Source: Frateuria edaphi (GTDB taxonomy: Bacteria > Pseudomonadota > Gammaproteobacteria > Xanthomonadales > Rhodanobacteraceae). Taken from it: 64,000 bases of DNA. Positions 19,388 to 28,500 of the stretch are shown here, piece by piece. The stretch's first letter is position 1. Every line of letters begins with the position of its first letter. Below the pieces are notes generated by a model. The model had not been told where the DNA came from and searched no databases. It saw only the letters and a list, made by a program, of their open reading frames with translations. The stretch is from assembly GCF_021117405.1 (NCBI RefSeq), contig NZ_CP088251.1, positions 992,001-1,056,000 on the forward strand. Direction: 5' to 3'. The position numbers were made by a program, and so were the translations under genes.

Positions 19388-19473
19388 AAAGAAAAAGGCC
19401 TTGCATCGCTGCAAGGCCTTCAAATTTGGCGCCCGAAGTTGGACTCGAACCAACGACCCCCTGATTAACAGTC
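19388..19473. repeat. Left attachment repeat (attL) with tRNA-Asn 3' fragment
   Basis: 86 bp identical to 28385-28470. It holds the tRNA-Asn terminator hairpin and tRNA residues from the CCA end (19427) back to the anticodon region. The sequence then diverges, so no complete tRNA exists here. Confidence 0.93.
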
Positions 19474-19639: not shown

Positions 19640-20851
19640 TTGGACGTAGCAGTGGCCAAGACCCATATCACGACGCGATTAGTTGCTAGCGCCGGACCAG
19701 GCGAGTACTGGGACACGCACATCACTGGATTCAAATTGGTTGTGACCCGGTCGGGCCATAAGTCCTTCGCCATCGAAGGCCGCATAGACGGACGCAAGGT
19801 AAAGCATTCGTTCGGACGTGCGAGCGTGATGGCAGTGGAACATGCACGCAAGCGTGCACGCTCGTTGCTGCTCGGCCTACTAGAGGGTCGTGACCCGACC
19901 AGGGAGGCCGCCGCCTCCCGCGAGGCATGGACACTCCAGGAGCTGGCGGACGCTTACAGCGAGTCCCATCTTCCCAAACTCCGCCCGGCATCCCAGGCGC
20001 AGTACACAAGCTACCTTGACCGCTTCATCCTTCCCGAGCTCGGCCGCTACCGCGTGAGAGATGTCCAAACAGCAGACGTACTGCGGCTGTTTCGACTCAC
20101 GGAAACCACCTCTATCGCTAGCAACCGAGCAGGTGCTCGCCGGACAACCGCCAATCGTGTCCTTGCCACGCTCTCAAGCATGTTTCATGAAGCATGCCTG
20201 TTAGGCCTTCGCATAGATAACCCTTGTCGCGGGGTCAGGCGGAATCCAGAAGTGCGACGCGAGCGGTACCTGTCAGAGGCGGAGACAGCCCGGCTGCTCG
20301 CCGCGTGTGACGCATCCCGCCACGCTTCGGTAGCGAACCTCATCCGGCTGCTCGTGTTCACCGGGGCGCGAAGGGGTGAAACTCTATCAGCGACGTGGGG
20401 TGAATTTGACCTTCAGGCAGGGACGTGGACGAAGCCAAGTCATCACACCAAGCAGAACCGCATTCATTCCACTCCCATTTCGCCGGCAGCAGTTGCATTG
20501 CTACGAGACATGAAGGGCCAGGCAGGGGCTATTGGCGAGAACGACTGGCTCTTCCCCGGTCGAGTTCCCGGCGAACGTCTGGCCAGCCCTAAGCGCGCCG
20601 TCAGCTCCATTTTTAGGTCTGCCAACCTAAGCGATGACGTCACCCTACATACCCTGAGGCACAGCTTTGCAGCTCGGGTGGTATCTGCGGGCCATGGTCT
20701 GCACGCCGCAGGCAAGCTAATGGGACACACGCAAGCAGCAACGACCCATCGTTACGCGCATCTCGAACACGATGCACAGCGACGCGCTCTCTCAGACGTG
20801 GATTCAGCCATAACTAAAGCACGGAGCAGATTGGTGCCCTCTAGCGTTTGA
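19640..20851 (+). CDS. int: Tyrosine recombinase / island integrase
   Basis: 403 aa phage-type integrase. An N-terminal arm-binding domain (KLVVTRSGHKSFAIEGRIDG) and SAM-like core-binding domain (YTSYLDRFILPELGRYR) precede the catalytic domain, with Arg in FTGARRGETL, His-x-x-Arg in LHTLRHSFA, His in MGHTQ and the nucleophile Tyr in HRYAHL. It lies 166 bp inside attL and points into the island, as is usual for tRNA integrases. The start is a TTG at 19640; a GTG at 19652 is an alternative, and neither has a good ribosome site. Confidence 0.93.
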   Translation: MDVAVAKTHITTRLVASAGPGEYWDTHITGFKLVVTRSGHKSFAIEGRIDGRKVKHSFGRASVMAVEHARKRARSLLLGLLEGRDPTREAAASREAWTLQELADAYSESHLPKLRPASQAQYTSYLDRFILPELGRYRVRDVQTADVLRLFRLTETTSIASNRAGARRTTANRVLATLSSMFHEACLLGLRIDNPCRGVRRNPEVRRERYLSEAETARLLAACDASRHASVANLIRLLVFTGARRGETLSATWGEFDLQAGTWTKPSHHTKQNRIHSTPISPAAVALLRDMKGQAGAIGENDWLFPGRVPGERLASPKRAVSSIFRSANLSDDVTLHTLRHSFAARVVSAGHGLHAAGKLMGHTQAATTHRYAHLEHDAQRRALSDVDSAITKARSRLVPSSV

Positions 20852-21422: not shown

Positions 21423-21890
21423 CTACAGCTGAAAGAGTTCGTCTTGGTCGAAAAATTGTTCACACCGAGCTTTTGTCATCCGAGCATCTTTGCCAAAGAA
21501 GACGTGCTTCAAGCTGCTCAAAAAGTTTTTGTAGCCAAGCTTGTCGTACTGCGAGATTTGGCGCGGTAGAGCCATATCAATCACGTCGGCGCGAATGGCC
21601 TGGCTCGCGCCGATGTGCGGAGGCTGGCTATCCGGAACTAACTCGAAATGCGAATACTTTGACGTCGGGCGATGAATGTAATGCTGAACCCTAAGCGCCT
21701 CACCACTTTTTTGCGGCACCTTAATGTGTCTAGCCTTCTTAAAGATTTCGTCAGCTTCGGCTTGCAACGCCTGACTCTGGGCGAAGAACTTCGTTCCAAA
21801 GGCCCAGAAAAACCAGTCCGGGTCCGAGAACATCACCTGTGGCAGCGTCTTCCCCTCGTGCTTACCGCGCGTTAGTACGGTCCAGGCCAT
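21423..21890 (-). CDS. Small protein with ExoX-C/DUF3820-like motif, third gene of the R-M-like operon
   Basis: 155 aa. The N-terminal GKHEGKTLPQVMFSDPDWFF segment resembles the short domain (GKxxGKxL...DPxYxxW) found at the C end of ExoX-like exonucleases and in DUF3820 proteins, where it is thought to help nucleic-acid handling. No nuclease motif is visible in the remainder. It lies 17 bp downstream of the endonuclease gene on the same strand. It may assist the restriction proteins; this is inference from position only. Confidence 0.6.
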   Translation of the reverse strand: MAWTVLTRGKHEGKTLPQVMFSDPDWFFWAFGTKFFAQSQALQAEADEIFKKARHIKVPQKSGEALRVQHYIHRPTSKYSHFELVPDSQPPHIGASQAIRADVIDMALPRQISQYDKLGYKNFLSSLKHVFFGKDARMTKARCEQFFDQDELFQL

Positions 21891-21907
21891 CTTTCTCTCC
21901 TTGAAAG

Positions 21908-22945
21908 CTACAGAGCTTGGGGTAAATAGCGAGCTAGGTCGGTGTTCGCAATCAGCTGCGGCAATGTGCTCAGAGTGAACACCTTGCCTTTCGTAGCCCT
22001 CAGCATGTCGCGCATGTCGCTTCGGCGGACTCCAAATCCCCGACCATCTATGCAGGCAACCAGCTGAAAGGTGCGCTGCTTGTTCCGTAAGCGCTCATCC
22101 CGCATTGAGGCGAGGCGGAGAATGCGGGCTACCTTATCCCTTGCCGTGCCGTCGTCCCCGGTAATCTTCGCCTCTATGATGACGCCAGGGCAGACTTCCG
22201 TTGGCACGAAGAAATCGGGGGCTTGGTCAAACTCTGGAACTCGCTCTGCACGCATAGTCTTGCGAAAAGTTATCCCAGCCTTCGCTAGTTCGCTCTCTAT
22301 AGCGCTCTCCATGACATCACCGATGAGCTCGGAGACCGCGTCCCGATGGCTTGCGAAGGGTCGCCCCAAGTAGCGCTCGTAGAGTAGAACAGCGTAAGGG
22401 ACGTGGTTGTTGGCGGCGTGCACTAGGGAGGCGGGCGCCGCATGCGTATCGAATTTGTCGAGACGATGAACCGCACCAGACCCGACGCCGGGGACCGGCT
22501 TGCTCAGCGCTTCAACGGCCACACGGACAAGAGCGCTCACCCGAGCCTGCGAGAGTGTGGCTAGCCGTGCCGCGAAGAGGTCCCTTCTAGACCTTACCTT
22601 GGTATCGAAGGAGCGAGCCGCGTTTGTCGGTACAGAGATACCCGTCTCGCTAGTCGCCAAATCGGCCCACTCGGGAGGGGAAAGGCCCAAAATCGTCCTT
22701 AGAACGACTAAGCACAACGCATCTTTGCACAACGCAAACCAGACTGTAGCTTCCGTCAGTTGGCGGAATCCATCTGTGTACTTCTTTAGGACCTCGTACG
22801 CGTCCTGGAAGTCCTGGAATTCGATGAACCCGGTGCCCCGGGGCAAGGTGAGGAACTGCGAGGTCAGGTCACTGAAGGTGACTTCTACCATCTCGTTGAG
22901 CCGGTCCTCGAGCTCCTCTTCAGTGAGGCAGAACGGATGGGTCAT
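21908..22945 (-). CDS. PD-(D/E)XK-type restriction endonuclease candidate
   Basis: 345 aa. The C-terminal third contains APDFF...GVIIEAK (about residues 240-260), fitting the P-D-X(n)-(E)-X-K nuclease core with a hydrophobic strand before EAK, and ends in a strand-rich segment (FQLVACIDGRGFGV). The N-terminal two thirds is helical and unlike known families to my reading. Its ATG overlaps the stop of the methyltransferase gene by 4 bases (22942-22945), the tight coupling expected of a restriction-modification pair. Target sequence unknown. Confidence 0.7.
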   Translation of the reverse strand: MTHPFCLTEEELEDRLNEMVEVTFSDLTSQFLTLPRGTGFIEFQDFQDAYEVLKKYTDGFRQLTEATVWFALCKDALCLVVLRTILGLSPPEWADLATSETGISVPTNAARSFDTKVRSRRDLFAARLATLSQARVSALVRVAVEALSKPVPGVGSGAVHRLDKFDTHAAPASLVHAANNHVPYAVLLYERYLGRPFASHRDAVSELIGDVMESAIESELAKAGITFRKTMRAERVPEFDQAPDFFVPTEVCPGVIIEAKITGDDGTARDKVARILRLASMRDERLRNKQRTFQLVACIDGRGFGVRRSDMRDMLRATKGKVFTLSTLPQLIANTDLARYLPQAL

Positions 22946-25077
22946 TTGTAGAGCCTTGTTTTTGTTCCTGAAGTTAACTTGGCAAGCGCTTCTTGGGCTA
23001 AGCCATCAAAGCCAACGCGCAACATCAAGAGCCGTAACACTTCGGAGGCCAAGTTCATCCGCTCAGCGATTGGGGGGGACCTTTGCCAATCCGTATGGCA
23101 GGAGTTGATAGCGAGCCCAGCCAGCCTTCCTGCCAAGAGGCAACGCACATCACCTCCGCTAACTTTCACGCCCGCCGCCGCCATCTGACGTATGTCTTCT
23201 TGCAAAACGGCCTCAAGCTCAGCTTCGTTCTGTGCAGGCTCGCTGGCGTCTGAGAAAGTTCGACAAACGAAGACCGAATCGACCACCGAAGAAGACGTGT
23301 TCGCTATATGCAGAGACGCCGACATCTCGGCAGCCGCGGGAAAAACCGCCGTGCAGACCATGCCCGAGTCAAGGACAGCAACAACCAACGGCACGTAGGC
23401 CAAAGGGTCGTTGTGGTGGTAGGTAAAGACCAACGGTGCCCCAGGTTTCAACGCTCCGCAGAAGTTCTGGTATACCAGTGACAATGCGTTGGTAAATTCC
23501 TCTAACCCTCGGCCAGCCGTGGAATTACCCGTCGCCTCATGGTCGGACCTCGTTGAGATGCTTGCGAATGCGTGATGGTCCGCGTCAATCGCCTTCCGTA
23601 GCCATACATAGCAAAAATCTATGAGCTCGGAGTATTGAACGTTCGCAAAGTACGGCGGGTCGGTAAAGACTCCATCTAGGGAGCCGGGCTCAAGCGGAAC
23701 ATCCTGCGATGGCAGGCAACTGATGCTGACGGACTTGCAGTTGTCCGCACCGATGGTTTCTCCGTCAGGAAAAACAAGAACTTTCTTCTTGCCAGAGAAG
23801 GCGGTCTCGAAGGGTTTGGCGCAATAGTTCTTGGCTCGAGCATATTTCTCGACGAAGTGCCTGAAGCCGCCAGACCCTACCTTTGGAATGCCTAACACGT
23901 TGTTTTCGCATTGAACCAGACCCACGGGAAAACCATGGACGCTGAAGATGTCTTGGCACTTCAATGCGTAGGTGTCATAACGACACAACATGTTGTTGTA
24001 ACGAAGTATGTCGGAGATGACCGTCAGTAGTGCATAGCGTATTGGCGCCGAAGGAACCTCCAAAGTCTTGGAAAACAAGTAGCTCAATGACAACAACTGC
24101 CGGTCATTGAACATTTGGCGGTATGTCCGATAGCCCCAACGGTGTAGCCGAGCGGTTTCGTCTCCCTTCGGAATCGCATCTTCCGGAATGAGCTGGCTGA
24201 AAGACGAGGTCTGCAGCTCCGCCTTGGCGTTCTCGTACCTTTCGAAATCATCTGCGTCCGGTCGTTTGAACTGACGGCCCTGCAAAGAACCATAGCAGGC
24301 AGCGCAGCGATACTCGATTGCCCACATCCGATGCTCCGGAGGTGGTGCGTCGTTGCTCGGAAAGCCAAAAGTTAGGTCACAGTGAGGACAAGTAACCTTG
24401 CCGCGCTTGTAGTTGCCCCCCGTCAACTTGCTTCCGCAGGCAGCGCAGCAAGACTCACCGGCACTGGGGAGGCTTGAGACTTCATTCAGCTCGCCGCAAG
24501 CGGTACACCCCACGACGTAATTCGGGTGTCGAACGTTCTCTGCCAAGAGGTGCCCCGGGAAAGCATCCACCACTTGGTCGCAACCAGGACACGTGCATGT
24601 CTTGACCCATAGGAAATACTTCACCTCTGCCGCTTGTCCACAACATTGGCAGGTGGTCTTGTAGAGCTCGCCCAGGCTTCGGTCGGCCTCTTCGGCCAAG
24701 CCTCCAGCCACCTCAAGGAGGTCTGCCACATCTAGGCCATCGAAGGCACGCTCAATCAACCAAGCAGACATAGGGTTGATGTCGTTCCCCACAACGCTCA
24801 ACCCTAAACGCGAGGCTTCGTAGAGGGTGGTGCCACCTCCCATGAACGGGTCTGCCACGACGCCGCGGCAGCTCTGGCCCTCCCAGAAGGCTTCAGGCAG
24901 AGGTGCTTGAGCGAATTCGGCGAGCAGAAGCGACCGAAACAGTGTGCCGGGCCGCCGCGCAAACCACTTGTGTATCCCGATGATGGGCCTGTAGTTCTGC
25001 TGGATTTGCTTCTCGCGGAGCGCTTGCGTTGAAGCAAAAGTCGCGTCAAACGCAGTTTCTAACCGGTTGCGTTTCAA
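22942..25077 (-). CDS. DNA methyltransferase with zinc ribbons (DUF1156/COG1743-like)
   Basis: About 711 aa. Motif order: N-terminal HKWFARRPGTLFR, the AdoMet motif DPFMGGGTTLYEASRLG (FxGxG type), then a large insert with five or more CxxC pairs (zinc ribbons, presumably target recognition), and the catalytic DPPYFANVQYSEL about 370 residues later. This order is that of alpha-class amino-methyltransferases acting on adenine or cytosine N4. The TTG start at 25077 is chosen because AGGA lies just upstream and family-like sequence (KRNRLETAFDATFAS) begins there; an ATG at 25314 would overlap the divergent recombinase start and adds atypical sequence. The endonuclease gene follows with a 4-base overlap. 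Confidence 0.8.
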   Translation of the reverse strand: MKRNRLETAFDATFASTQALREKQIQQNYRPIIGIHKWFARRPGTLFRSLLLAEFAQAPLPEAFWEGQSCRGVVADPFMGGGTTLYEASRLGLSVVGNDINPMSAWLIERAFDGLDVADLLEVAGGLAEEADRSLGELYKTTCQCCGQAAEVKYFLWVKTCTCPGCDQVVDAFPGHLLAENVRHPNYVVGCTACGELNEVSSLPSAGESCCAACGSKLTGGNYKRGKVTCPHCDLTFGFPSNDAPPPEHRMWAIEYRCAACYGSLQGRQFKRPDADDFERYENAKAELQTSSFSQLIPEDAIPKGDETARLHRWGYRTYRQMFNDRQLLSLSYLFSKTLEVPSAPIRYALLTVISDILRYNNMLCRYDTYALKCQDIFSVHGFPVGLVQCENNVLGIPKVGSGGFRHFVEKYARAKNYCAKPFETAFSGKKKVLVFPDGETIGADNCKSVSISCLPSQDVPLEPGSLDGVFTDPPYFANVQYSELIDFCYVWLRKAIDADHHAFASISTRSDHEATGNSTAGRGLEEFTNALSLVYQNFCGALKPGAPLVFTYHHNDPLAYVPLVVAVLDSGMVCTAVFPAAAEMSASLHIANTSSSVVDSVFVCRTFSDASEPAQNEAELEAVLQEDIRQMAAAGVKVSGGDVRCLLAGRLAGLAINSCHTDWQRSPPIAERMNLASEVLRLLMLRVGFDGLAQEALAKLTSGTKTRLYK

Positions 25078-25234
25078 GTCAGTCCTGGCGGCAGGCGATG
25101 GTGTGTGGTGCTCCCGCTCTTGGAGGAGCAGCGGTGCGGCCCCCTCGATTCCGGAGCGTCGCTGGTCCCTCCTCTCCTCGACAGTTAAGGAAGAGGCCGC
25201 ACGGAACCATGCGCAGTACCGAAAAGTATACCTG

Positions 25235-25272
25235 TTGAGACCCCCTGCTCTGCGTATCAGAAGTCGTCTCAA
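25235..25272. promoter_or_regulatory. Inverted repeat in the divergent methyltransferase/recombinase promoter region
   Basis: TTGAGAC (25235-25241) and GTCTCAA (25266-25272) form 7-bp arms 24 bases apart. An AT-rich stretch with TATAGTAT follows before the recombinase start. Possible operator for autoregulation of the island genes. Confidence 0.4.
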
Positions 25273-25312
25273 TATAGTATTCTCATAATTTCTTGGAGAT
25301 TTGGAGACGCTC

Positions 25313-25870
25313 ATGAGCGAGATTGTCGGCTACTGCAGGGTCAGCTCGACCTCTCAGTCCCTTGCAGTCCAGCTCGGTGAGCTCGAGTTGGCTGGTTGCA
25401 CCAAAGTCTTTGCTGAGAAGAGGTCTGCGCGCTATAGCGACAACCGCCCGGAACTGAAGGCATGCCTGGAGTACGTCCGCGAGGGCGATACGTTGGTGAT
25501 ATCTCGCCTTGACCGTATGGCGAGAAGCGTCTTGGACCTAGCCTCAATCGCCGACCGGCTCCACAGGAAGGGCGTCAACCTGAAGGTCATCAACCAAGGA
25601 ATCGACACCTCCACGTCCGAGGGCAAACTGCTGTTCGGCATTCTGAGCACATTCGCAGCCTTCGAGCTGGACATTAGGTCCGAACGCCAGAAGGCAGGCA
25701 TCGAAGCCGCTATGTCGGCTGGAGTGAAGTTCGGTCGCAAGAAGAGCCTGACGGACGAGCAGAAGCTCACCATACGGCGCTTGCGGGAGCAGGAGGGGTT
25801 CTCCATAGCTCAGCTGCAGACGCGGTTTCACGTAAGTCGTGCGACTGTCTACAGAGCACTAACCGACTAG
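25313..25870 (+). CDS. Serine recombinase, resolvase/invertase family
   Basis: 185 aa. The N-terminal catalytic domain begins IVGYCRVSSTSQSLAVQ, with Ser of YCRVS as the nucleophile, and has the conserved SRLDRMARSVLDL and GKLLFGILSTFAAFELD blocks. The C-terminal helix-turn-helix (SIAQLQTRFHVSRATVYRAL) is of the Pin/Hin/Tn3 resolvase type. The ATG at 25313 has GGAG 6 bases upstream. It is divergent from the methyltransferase and immediately precedes the structured non-coding region, which could include its recombination site or be an independent RNA gene. Confidence 0.92.
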   Translation: MSEIVGYCRVSSTSQSLAVQLGELELAGCTKVFAEKRSARYSDNRPELKACLEYVREGDTLVISRLDRMARSVLDLASIADRLHRKGVNLKVINQGIDTSTSEGKLLFGILSTFAAFELDIRSERQKAGIEAAMSAGVKFGRKKSLTDEQKLTIRRLREQEGFSIAQLQTRFHVSRATVYRALTD

Positions 25871-25873
25871 CAC

Positions 25874-26331
25874 CTGGCGTCCTGGAACGGCTTTTAATTG
25901 GGACGTTGAGGCTGCGCCATGACGCCAGCCATCGTGGTACCGAGAAATGTTGCACGCCCCCTACCAGAGGGCGTGGCCTCGGCGAATGCAACACGTCTGG
26001 TGGCCCGGAACCGAGGCTGGACGTAATTCTCTAATGTCGATAGCTTGAAAGGGGTCCTCCTGACTCCGCACGTTCGAGAACTCGACTTGTGTTGGGTTCC
26101 GATAGCTGGGGTGATGCATGCGTCACCCCAGCTTAGGCATCCGCACGGGTGCAGACGTGCGGATGCCTACGTTTATTCCAAAGCTTGTGAGCTGGCGGGT
26201 CCCGCCAGCTCACGGTGGCGGCCAACTCTCGCTTCGCTGTGAGCTTGGCCACCACTCGGGCTTCTCCAGGGAACCACGCATAGCCGCATCACTTAACCTA
26301 GGCCTCCCTTATAAGGGAGTGGTCTTTTTTT
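25874..26331 (+). ncRNA. Candidate structured non-coding RNA (multi-hairpin, pseudoknot, own terminator)
   Basis: No protein is supported in this gap. In order: an 8-bp helix 25874-25881/25921-25928; a crossing-helix module 25948-26017; hairpin A 26104-26114/26123-26133 (11 bp perfect); hairpin B 26134-26146/26157-26169 (13 bp perfect, 10-nt loop); hairpin C 26187-26199/26201-26213 (13-base arms, one central base); hairpin D 26215-26225/26245-26255 (one mismatch); then the terminator at 26304-26331. The T-run fixes the direction as +. Helices touch end to end as in folded RNAs, and arms differ in sequence so they are not REP copies. It could be independent or the 3' UTR of the recombinase mRNA. 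Family not recognised. Confidence 0.6.
26304..26331 (+). terminator. Rho-independent terminator closing the structured region
   Basis: CTCCCTT (26304-26310) pairs with AAGGGAG (26313-26319), followed by TGGTC and seven T. The palindrome's other side has no T-run, so it works only in the + direction. Confidence 0.85.
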
Positions 26332-26392
26332 GTTCAAAAACAGCAACTTGAAAGAAATTTTACCCAGCTAGAACCGACCTCCAGAGCCACCG

Positions 26393-27982
26393 ATGCCCGA
26401 GAACAACCTTTCCAGCCGAATTGCAGCATCGGCAGTAGCTACCGCGATTGCTTCGAAGCCAGAGGTCCCGGTCGTGGTCCACTGGCAACTACCAGACTTC
26501 CCTGTCCATGTTGCCCAAGCTCTGCTGAAGCAAGGCCACTCGCTCGTGTGGGTCGTTGCTTCACCCGAGCGCGGCGACAGTGCGGAGGTCGAGCTGGTGC
26601 GGGCCGGGATAAAGGTTCGCAGGATTCTTGGTGAGAACGAAGCAGCAGCCAAAGTAACTGGAGTTGAAACCAAGTACGAGGTCGGCAATTTGCAGCCCTT
26701 TGAGGCGCCCAAGGTAGACAAGGCTGCTGACCGCCAAAGGCGCGAAAAGCTTACCCCGCTAGGACGAGCTCGCCTCCAAGCCAAGGTGAGGCTCGCCGAA
26801 CGTGCGCTTTGCGCACCGGACGCGGGGGCGGTCACCATCATAGCCATCGGTCGGTTAGGCCATGCCAAGCCGGTGGAAGAGATAGCGTCCTGGGCTTCAG
26901 CTCTCGTGGTTTTTGACCATCTGAGCACGGTCAACGTCGGGTGGAAGGACCTAGCCGAGACCGGCGCCTCGTTTGAGGAGCGCCTTGTCTCTCGTCCTCA
27001 CGATAGGCACGCAATTCAGCTGTTCGCTGATAGGTCAGTCCCGCAAGTGTTCTTGACGCGGGATGAGTGCGCCATAGCACTGTTAGATGCTTACTTTCAC
27101 AAGCGGCAGTGTGCTTTGAAGTTGCTTGCAACTAAGCCATACGCCCCATCGTCTTTGCGGGTTTCTGTAGTAGCAACCGACCTCGTCAAATCCAAGCACG
27201 CCGCCGCCACGTTCCTTGGGATTCGGGCCTGCTCCGAAGTCCAGGTGGTGGGAGAGGCTATTTTTGGAAGCTTCACGCCTGCTTACCTGTCGATGAGCAC
27301 CTGCCGTCCCCTTAGTCGGTCAGTGCTGAAGGTTTCGCATATGGCTCCAGACATCCTTCGCCTTATGACTTTGCAGACTGGACTTAGCCTGAGGGACTAT
27401 TCGAAACGGCGCCTGAGGGACCACATTCGAACGACGGTGATGAGCTTCAGCGCGAGCGTCCGCAAGCCCGAGCTCGTCATCTTGTGTCCATGGGACCTAG
27501 CCGGAGAGGTGCAACAGCTCACGGGCTGCGAGCCTGCGAAGCTAAGTGCCTGGCCCTTTGCAGCCTCCCTCATGCCAACAAAGGTTGTTCCGTCTGGAAC
27601 AAAGTTCGTACACCAAATCCTTGGAATTCTCATCGGCCTTCCGGGCATGCTCACCGATGGCCGAAGGCAGGAACGCATCCGCCAGCTCATGGACGTTGAA
27701 CTTGAGGCCAACGAAGCGACAGTCCCAGGGTTACTGGCTAGGCTTGCCCACGCCCTACACACGCAGACGCAGCTAGGCGACCGTTTGGATTTGGCAGACA
27801 GACCTGAGCGATACATGGGCCTGTCTGATAGGGGAGACAAGGCACTGGCGCTTTTCAGTCTGCTTCTAGAGCACTGCTTGCCATGGTCGCCACGCTCCTC
27901 CGGTTCTGAAGCACAGAAGGTCCTCGCCGGACGGCGTAGGGTATTCGAGAAGTATCGTTTCTATCGCTCCCAGGCAAATTAG
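26393..27982 (+). CDS. Unknown 529-aa island protein
   Basis: Not recognised. The N-terminal part (PVVVHWQLPDFPVHVAQALL...HSLVWVVASPERGDSAEVELV) reads as alternating strand/helix, possibly Rossmann-like. A Lys/Arg-rich helical segment follows (DKAADRQRREKLTPLGRARL, about residues 115-140) and a helical C-terminal half. No signal peptide or membrane helix is evident, and no nuclease, helicase, reverse-transcriptase or RuvC motif is found. The start is 62 bases after the terminator, with a possible own promoter (TTGAAA at about 26349) and no clear ribosome site. It is the last large gene before attR. Linkage with the upstream RNA is only positional. Confidence 0.75.
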   Translation: MPENNLSSRIAASAVATAIASKPEVPVVVHWQLPDFPVHVAQALLKQGHSLVWVVASPERGDSAEVELVRAGIKVRRILGENEAAAKVTGVETKYEVGNLQPFEAPKVDKAADRQRREKLTPLGRARLQAKVRLAERALCAPDAGAVTIIAIGRLGHAKPVEEIASWASALVVFDHLSTVNVGWKDLAETGASFEERLVSRPHDRHAIQLFADRSVPQVFLTRDECAIALLDAYFHKRQCALKLLATKPYAPSSLRVSVVATDLVKSKHAAATFLGIRACSEVQVVGEAIFGSFTPAYLSMSTCRPLSRSVLKVSHMAPDILRLMTLQTGLSLRDYSKRRLRDHIRTTVMSFSASVRKPELVILCPWDLAGEVQQLTGCEPAKLSAWPFAASLMPTKVVPSGTKFVHQILGILIGLPGMLTDGRRQERIRQLMDVELEANEATVPGLLARLAHALHTQTQLGDRLDLADRPERYMGLSDRGDKALALFSLLLEHCLPWSPRSSGSEAQKVLAGRRRVFEKYRFYRSQAN

Positions 27983-28115
27983 GTGCACACAAACGGTCAG
28001 CGCGGCAGAGCCCGCTGCCCACAGGGAGGGGGGCGGGTTTCAGGAGATATTAGGTAACCGTTGTACCCAACGCGCTAGCCATGTGTGCGACACCTTCCCC
28101 ACGCGAGCCCCACCT

Positions 28116-28271
28116 ATGCAAACGTATGTAGTAACCATGGCATGCGCGGTCGGTGGCGCCGGCACGTTCGACGCAATCGTCTACGCCCTATCGCCAGCGA
28201 TGGCCCGCATCACGGCCGAAACCCACCATCCCGGCTTCTCAGCGCGCGCGGTAAGGAACGTACCAACCTAG
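28116..28271 (+). CDS. Possible small island protein (51 aa)
   Basis: MQTYVVTMACAVGGAGTFDA then a helical ARITAETHHPG segment. The pattern resembles short beta-alpha proteins but no family is recognised. It is a weak call based on amino-acid texture. The remaining gap 27,983-28,384 shows no other gene. Confidence 0.3.
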   Translation: MQTYVVTMACAVGGAGTFDAIVYALSPAMARITAETHHPGFSARAVRNVPT

Positions 28272-28384
28272 CGAACCCAGGTTCGAGCTCGAAGCTAGCC
28301 GCTCTCAAAGAAGCTTTCACACCGGCGGCACCGGTCTTGGTCAGCTGCCCCTACACCGCCCCCACCGATGCCGTGCCCTCACCA

Positions 28385-28470
28385 AAAGAAAAAGGCCTTG
28401 CATCGCTGCAAGGCCTTCAAATTTGGCGCCCGAAGTTGGACTCGAACCAACGACCCCCTGATTAACAGTC
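28385..28470. repeat. Right attachment repeat (attR) overlapping tRNA-Asn
   Basis: Perfect 86-bp copy of 19388-19473. It supplies the 3' half of the intact tRNA-Asn and its terminator, so integration keeps the tRNA functional. Confidence 0.93.
28389..28417 (-). terminator. Terminator of tRNA-Asn
   Basis: An 11-bp perfect stem (28392-28402 with 28407-28417). Read on the minus strand it is followed by a T-run just after the tRNA 3' end. It is duplicated within attL. Confidence 0.88.
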
Positions 28471-28500
28471 AAGTGCTCTAACCAGCTGAGCTATTCGGGC
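28424..28500 (-). tRNA. tRNA-Asn (GTT)
   Basis: 77 nt including the encoded CCA. Acceptor GCCCGAA pairs with TTCGGGC. The anticodon loop CTGTTAA gives anticodon GTT, and the T-arm GGTTCGAGTCC is canonical. It is the integration target of the adjacent island. Confidence 0.97.

What the first reader, a model, noticed from the sequence alone, without database searches (positions are those of the whole stretch)
25874..26331. 460-bp multi-hairpin non-coding locus in a defence-type island, with its own terminator
Seen: after the serine recombinase stop come an 8-bp helix, a crossing-helix module, four consecutive near-perfect hairpins (stems of 10-13 bp, each of different sequence) and a T-run terminator that fixes the direction as +. 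No supported ORF covers it. Inference: a folded RNA of an undescribed family, perhaps acting with the adjacent unknown 529-aa protein or the serine recombinase. Established comparisons: retron, HEARO/omega and bridge RNAs also sit beside their proteins, but no reverse transcriptase, TnpB/IscB or DEDD recombinase is encoded here.
Basis: partly seen in the sequence, partly recalled or inferred. Interest (0 to 1): 0.82.

Follow-up and report, generated by a model that had tools for sequence, protein, structure and literature searches.

The report
Orphan structured RNA beside orphan protein
A small mobile island in a bacterial chromosome carries an unusually strongly folded stretch that looks like a non-coding RNA gene, next to an unknown protein in a spot where related islands often carry anti-phage genes; its layout resembles RNA-protein defence pairs, but no relative was found, so its function is unproven.

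Summary
The feature is real. 26100-26260 folds far more strongly than its shuffles (z -10.2, 0 of 200). In a 400-kb sample of the same genome no two perfect hairpins of 11 bp or more lie within 160 nt; here three lie within 110 nt. The 5' part holds a hairpin and a knotted module (25947-26017) that 0 of 300 shuffles match, though the region was chosen after the fact. A T-run terminator and two hairpins favour the + strand. No Rfam family fits.

The locus sits in a 9-kb tRNA-Asn island. The serine recombinase looks like an ordinary DNA-site recombinase: 17 relatives share its res-like upstream region, and none carries this RNA or the 529-aa protein within 1.5 kb. Relatives often sit beside anti-phage genes: 13 of 27 neighbour proteins match PADLOC models, against 2 of 20 control proteins.

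Best reading: RNA, terminator and protein form a cargo module laid out like type III toxin-antitoxin or AbiF pairs. RNA and protein are orphans (only the window's own genome among 197 and 233 family genomes), so covariation, expression and binding are untested; a cis-acting leader is a close rival.

The parts
19388..19473 (.). left attachment repeat of the island (86 bp, identical to the right one)
   Evidence: blastn within the window
28385..28470 (.). right attachment repeat; overlaps the 3' end of tRNA-Asn (28424-28500, -)
25161..25312 (.). res-like region of the serine recombinase (crossover core GTATAC at 25226 plus further subsites)
   Evidence: alignment with 17 relatives
25301..25870 (+). 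serine recombinase, resolvase type (Pfam Resolvase + HTH_7 above cut-off); likely start ATG at 25313
   Evidence: start judged from the sequence
25871..26335 (+). proposed non-coding RNA locus
   Evidence: z -8.75, 0 of 100 shuffles; single copy, no Rfam match
25874..25928 (+). 5' hairpin with 8-bp basal helix; more stable on + (-27.3) than on - (-20.1 kcal/mol)
25947..26019 (+). knotted module: 25948-25953/25988-25993, 25954-25959/25969-25974, loop 25961-25968/25996-26003, 25975-25982/26011-26018
   Evidence: 0 of 300 shuffles; 1 of 396 (71 nt) and 3 of 396 (95 nt) control windows; region chosen after the fact
26104..26133 (+). hairpin 1, 13-14 bp with one G-U
26134..26169 (+). hairpin 2, 14 bp perfect, 8-nt loop
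26187..26213 (+). hairpin 3, 12-13 bp perfect
26215..26255 (+). hairpin 4, imperfect (4+6+5 bp)
26304..26331 (+). intrinsic terminator with T-run, between RNA and protein gene
26393..27982 (+). 529-aa orphan protein, proposed partner
   Evidence: 0 Pfam, PADLOC, NCBIfam, PHROGs or PDB-sequence matches; GC by codon position like the other island genes

Best explanation
25871-26335 most likely encodes a discrete + strand non-coding RNA of about 460 nt: a 5' hairpin, a knotted domain, a hairpin array and its own terminator. It forms one cargo module with the 529-aa gene downstream, in the defence slot of a recombinase-bearing island. Proposed working, as in type III toxin-antitoxin or AbiF pairs: transcription mostly stops at 26331, so RNA is made in excess; the RNA binds the protein and holds it inactive (or shapes its activity); leak-through makes a little protein; infection upsets the balance. 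Shown: the anatomy, its excess over chance, the gene order RNA-terminator-protein, and the frequent defence context of the recombinase family. Inferred: transcription, binding, inhibition, anti-phage role.
For: Array z -10.2, 0 of 200 shuffles; 0 of 2000 genome windows as stable, 0 clusters in 400 kb. Knotted module 0 of 300 shuffles. Plus-strand bias of the 5' hairpin and hairpin 1 and a + strand terminator. RNA, Rho-independent terminator, protein gene is the stated arrangement of type III systems (PMC5086642, passages) and of AbiF/RCd22 (PMC12373285, abstract and passages). Recombinase relatives often flank defence genes: 13 of 27 neighbour proteins match PADLOC against 2 of 20 control proteins (Fisher p 0.010); 11 of 18 loci have at least one match (17 had a protein to scan). 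The divergent neighbour here is a DUF1156/PglX-like methyltransferase.
Against: No relative of RNA or protein was found, so there is no covariation and no proof that the two travel together. The 529-aa protein has no known domain, and single-sequence models are too poor to use (mean pLDDT 36 and 39). No promoter was recognised before the RNA. The RNA has no tandem repeats, unlike known type III antitoxins. The 5' half is not exceptional by nested folding nor over longer stretches with crossing helices. Hairpin 4 is slightly more stable on the - strand. The PADLOC control comes from one genome (this one), some loci share the same cargo (TIR in L049 and L057, PDC-M45A in L055 and L059), and some PADLOC models are broad (AAA ATPase, ankyrin).
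Confidence: 0.36

Rival explanations
1. A cis-acting leader of the 529-aa gene: the structured RNA acts on RNA polymerase or the terminator (attenuation or processive antitermination, as put RNA does) and sets read-through into the gene. The RNA has no function of its own.
For: The terminator lies about 60 nt before the start codon and the structured stretch runs up to it. A 35-aa frame with GAGG upstream could be a leader peptide. No separate promoter for the RNA was recognised.
Against: Known antitermination RNAs are shorter (recalled). No antiterminator pairing is evident, but none was searched for. The leader-peptide frame shows no codon bias.
Confidence: 0.26
2. 3' untranslated region of the recombinase mRNA, or a stack of insulating hairpins and terminators, without a function beyond transcript ending and stability.
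For: It starts directly at the recombinase stop; hairpin 2 also scores as terminator-like. No RNA homologue was found.
Against: 17 recombinase relatives have no such tail. Several stable hairpins plus a knot exceed what termination needs (inference).
Confidence: 0.15
3. A DNA-level element: recombination or binding sites, or hairpins that act as single-stranded DNA during transfer of the island.
For: Near-perfect palindromes fold on either strand (array z -10.3 on -). Two CGATAGCT copies resemble one arm of the recombinase site in some relatives.
Against: The recombinase site lies upstream of its gene. The hairpins differ from each other and are not repeated in the genome. G-U pairs and the terminator favour RNA on the + strand.
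Confidence: 0.12
4. A decayed remnant of another element (for example a retron whose reverse transcriptase is lost).
For: A recombinase relative (L056) sits beside a type VII retron gene, so retrons do visit this slot. Both parts here are orphans.
Against: Perfect 12-14 bp stems do not look decayed. The 529-aa frame is intact.
Confidence: 0.08

Closest known systems
Type III toxin-antitoxin systems (ToxIN, CptIN, TenpIN)
   Same: Order RNA, Rho-independent terminator, protein gene; a pseudoknotted RNA (pseudoknots in ToxIN: search listing and recall); defence context.
   Different: No tandem repeats in the RNA; protein of 529 aa without a Pfam or PADLOC match; RNA part about 460 nt.
AbiF (Abi_2) with its ncRNA, Rfam RF03085
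   Same: Structured RNA of stable hairpins ended by a terminator just upstream of a toxic defence protein.
   Different: No abiF motif; no Abi_2 match.
HK022 put and similar antitermination RNAs
   Same: A cis-acting RNA element that suppresses termination (start of abstract of PMC9378689 in the listing); consecutive hairpins (recalled).
   Different: No Rfam match; larger, with a knotted domain (size comparison recalled).
Retron, omega/HEARO and bridge RNAs
   Same: Structured RNA beside a protein gene in a mobile element (recalled).
   Different: No reverse transcriptase, TnpB/IscB or IS110-type match in the seven island proteins scanned; no Rfam match.

Membership tests
Type III toxin-antitoxin | tandem nucleotide repeats forming the antitoxin RNA | tested here: not met
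   Tandem Repeats Finder on 25850-26400: 0 arrays at score 30 or more
Type III toxin-antitoxin | Rho-independent terminator between RNA and protein gene | tested here: met
   terminator-like site 26304-26319 plus T-run
Type III toxin-antitoxin | toxin of the ToxN/CptN/TenpN families | tested here: not met
   0 families in Pfam, PADLOC, NCBIfam at E up to 1; fold not usable, so a distant fold match stays open
AbiF system | Abi_2 protein and abiF RNA motif | tested here: not met
Retron | reverse transcriptase next to the RNA | tested here: not met
   no RT match in seven island proteins; no YxDD in the 529-aa protein
Any Rfam family | covariance-model match at gathering score | tested here: not met
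   only two tRNAs in the window; below-threshold search gave two weak matches at E 1.1 and 4.1
Conserved structured RNA | covarying base pairs among relatives | not testable with these tools
   no relatives found
Resolvase-type serine recombinase (the neighbour) | resolvase domain, C-terminal HTH and a res-like DNA region upstream | tested here: met
   alignment of window and 17 relatives

The most novel reading that the evidence does not exclude
A new two-part anti-phage system: an RNA with a compact multiply knotted domain and hairpin array that guides or restrains a protein of an undescribed family, carried as exchangeable cargo beside a defence-associated serine recombinase.
Probability: 0.28. 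Interest if true: 0.85.

Novelty: new variant of a known kind. Interest (0 to 1): 0.52.

Why it matters
Few defence systems outside CRISPR and the reverse-transcriptase systems are known to rest on a structured RNA (recalled). A locus with such strong folding, its own terminator, an orphan protein and a setting often occupied by defence genes is a small, testable candidate (about 2.1 kb). The recombinase analysis also gives a handle for finding others: its upstream res-like region seems to mark a slot for exchangeable cargo.

Tried and rejected
Homologue hunts that failed. The 529-aa protein: plasmids, phages, 197 family, 369 class, 398 phylum and 233 family genomes; these sets overlap, and the only convincing hit in each was the window's own genome. 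Five weak class hits and one weak phylum hit were inspected and dropped as chance: interrupted alignments, other frames or unrelated genes. Peptide-pattern scans: genome contigs and viral contigs; two viral matches of 23 residues (L072, L073) were dropped as chance. The RNA: phages, plasmids, 197 family genomes, and a pattern for the knotted module in viral contigs (0 matches). A covariance model of the array (one sequence entered twice) matched, besides its own genome, 4 of 197 family genomes at E 0.04-0.08 per genome, which is within chance for so many genomes; the two full-length matches (L043, L044) do not reproduce the hairpin arrangement. That search used stricter filters and can lose weak matches.

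Considered and rejected: resolvase subsites as the cause of the hairpins (sequences differ; the site lies upstream); REP-like repeats (single copy); HEPN RxxxxH motifs in the protein (2 found; 381 of 1000 shuffles have as many); folds from single-sequence AlphaFold2 (too poor to search). A resemblance of the knotted module to self-cleaving ribozymes (HDV-like, pistol) is recalled only; no Rfam match supports it.

Literature: the listings showed no paper describing this locus; this covers only that library and those terms.

Corrected on checking: the GC of the 35-aa frame was computed one base out of register (one search gives the right values, same conclusion), and stops reported for L014, L019 and L023 are the codon just before the start, not internal.

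Full report
Setting. The window is part of a 3.77-Mb single-contig genome. A 9-kb island lies between two identical 86-bp repeats, 19388-19473 and 28385-28470; the right one overlaps the 3' end of tRNA-Asn. GC in 500-base steps is 0.51-0.61 inside the island and 0.62-0.69 just outside. The island holds a tyrosine integrase (19640-20851), a small unknown gene, three leftward genes (21423-25314), the largest of them a DUF1156/PglX-like DNA methyltransferase (PADLOC E 5.7e-20; NCBIfam below its cut-off), then rightward the serine recombinase, the structured stretch and the 529-aa gene.

Observation. The whole stretch has a folding z-score of -8.75 on the + strand, 0 of 100 shuffles, and -7.60 on the - strand. 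Split up, the array 26100-26260 gives z -10.2 (0 of 200 shuffles); the 5' hairpin 25871-25932 gives -3.65 on + and -1.61 on -; the 5' half as a whole only -1.54 (16 of 200); the tail with the terminator is not unusual. In a 400-kb sample of the same genome 21 perfect hairpins of at least 11 bp occur and no two lie within 160 nt; in the 64-kb window there are 9, three of them here within 110 nt. None of 2000 random 161-nt windows folds as stably (best -101.9 against -105.7 kcal/mol).

Knotted module. When crossing helices of 6 bp or more are allowed, 25947-26017 holds 22 bp and 25936-26030 holds 28 bp in mutually compatible helices. This is reached by 0 of 300 shuffles in both cases, and by 1 of 396 and 3 of 396 windows of the 64 kb. 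Over longer stretches the test is weaker: 25871-26030 6 of 300 shuffles and 55 of 395 windows; 25930-26100 11 of 300 and 67 of 370; 26018-26100 25 of 300 and 65 of 396. A simpler test with two crossing helices gave 12 of 500 shuffles and 50 of 628 windows. The short region was picked after seeing it, so its figures overstate significance. The strongest crossing helix pairs the 9-nt loop of hairpin 25953-25975 with 25996-26003, an H-type pseudoknot geometry.

Strand. The terminator with its T-run is on +. The 5' hairpin (-27.3 against -20.1 kcal/mol) and hairpin 1 (-24.1 against -20.4) are more stable as + strand RNA; hairpin 2 slightly so (-28.0 against -26.5), hairpin 3 equal, hairpin 4 slightly the other way (-23.1 against -23.9). 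No sigma-70-like promoter was found in 25000-28450 on either strand. A 35-aa frame at 25919 has GAGG upstream but flat GC by codon position (0.69, 0.63, 0.63).

The recombinase is a separate matter. Among 197 family genomes 29, the window's own included, have a match at E 1e-20. The window was aligned with 17 close relatives (58-66% identity; L008-L023, L036) over 150 bp upstream of the gene: a crossover core and further subsites are shared. The core GTATAC is exact in 15 of 17; the two others have GTATAG and GCATAC. Left of the core the sequences diverge: of 136 pairs only L010/L012 reach 60% identity over 60 bp. Around these 17 genes (1.5 kb each side) there is no hairpin array, no similarity to the RNA stretch and no relative of the 529-aa protein (blastn gave only matches of up to 33 nt to that gene). 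The larger flanks of 18 loci and the relatives in Arenimonas caeni (L066) and Sphingomonas (L070) also gave no match to either. The recombinase therefore does not need this RNA.

Defence context. From 18 recombinase loci with larger flanks (the 17 above and a second G133 copy) I took, where present, the first long gene downstream and the divergent gene upstream: 27 proteins from 17 loci. PADLOC models match 13 of 27 at E <= 1e-5, in 11 loci: SIR2/ThsA-like, two TIR proteins, two AriA/PtuA-type ATPases, a type VII retron protein, a type IIG enzyme, a cytosine methyltransferase, Hp1, two PDC-M45A, one PDC-S15, one PDC-M72A/ankyrin. Fourteen of 27 have no match. Of 20 control proteins from this genome 2 match, Fisher p 0.010. 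Limits: the control comes from one genome, neighbours were chosen by simple ORF rules, some loci share cargo and so are not independent, and several models are broad. The abstract of PMC12529663 says that recombinases are often found beside anti-phage genes. The structured stretch and the 529-aa gene thus occupy a slot where relatives often carry defence cargo.

The protein. 529 aa, no match in Pfam, PADLOC, NCBIfam, PHROGs or the PDB sequences. GC by codon position (0.65, 0.46, 0.63) is like that of the other island genes, so it is probably a real gene. Two single-sequence models had mean pLDDT 36 and 39 and were not searched. All homologue searches failed (see Tried and rejected). The pattern scans reach close relatives only, and the genome searches are samples (197, 369, 398 and 233 genomes, overlapping), so rarity rather than uniqueness is shown.

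Mechanism. The order structured RNA, Rho-independent terminator, protein gene is the stated organisation of type III toxin-antitoxin operons (PMC5086642, passages). In C. difficile AbiF a structured RNA of stable hairpins ends at a terminator just upstream of the toxin gene and neutralises the toxin by direct binding (PMC12373285, abstract and passages). By layout this locus could work like those; by membership it is neither, because it lacks tandem repeats, an abiF motif and any recognised toxin family. A cis-acting leader, by attenuation or antitermination, fits the same anatomy and is the main rival.

Verdict. A real, strongly folded element, probably an RNA gene, without described relatives. 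Its pairing with the 529-aa protein is the best guess, not a result. What holds the score down is that everything rests on one sequence.

Noticed in passing
25161-25312 and L008-L023, L036: A res-like region with a GTATAC crossover core upstream of a serine recombinase is shared by 17 relatives while the DNA beyond the core diverges; the slots downstream and divergently upstream carry varied genes, often of defence type.
   Followed up: partly
26037-26045 and 26100-26107: Two copies of CGATAGCT in the same orientation resemble one arm of the recombinase site (TTCCGATAGC in some relatives); repeats of this length may be chance.
   Followed up: partly
25919-26026: 35-aa frame with GAGG upstream overlapping the knotted module; flat GC by codon position.
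   Followed up: partly
21423-25314: Three leftward genes: a DUF1156/PglX-like methyltransferase, a 345-aa and a 155-aa protein without a family above cut-off; perhaps a restriction-modification or Pgl-like system.
   Followed up: no
L056 8512-10227: A recombinase relative sits next to a type VII-A1 retron protein (RT-DUF3800).
   Followed up: no
L060: A recombinase relative sits next to a HlyD-like protein and a large second gene that look like a peptide exporter rather than defence (judged by eye; no PADLOC match for the first).
   Followed up: no
L022, L032 and G123:C1:3649066-3649624: Some recombinase relatives look shortened or broken: L022 stops a few codons before the end of the match, L032 is a fragment with a stop, the G123 place is two overlapping pieces.
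   Followed up: no
L045 near 1499-1528: A hairpin 87% identical over 30 nt to hairpin 2 lies in another genome of the family; probably chance.
   Followed up: partly
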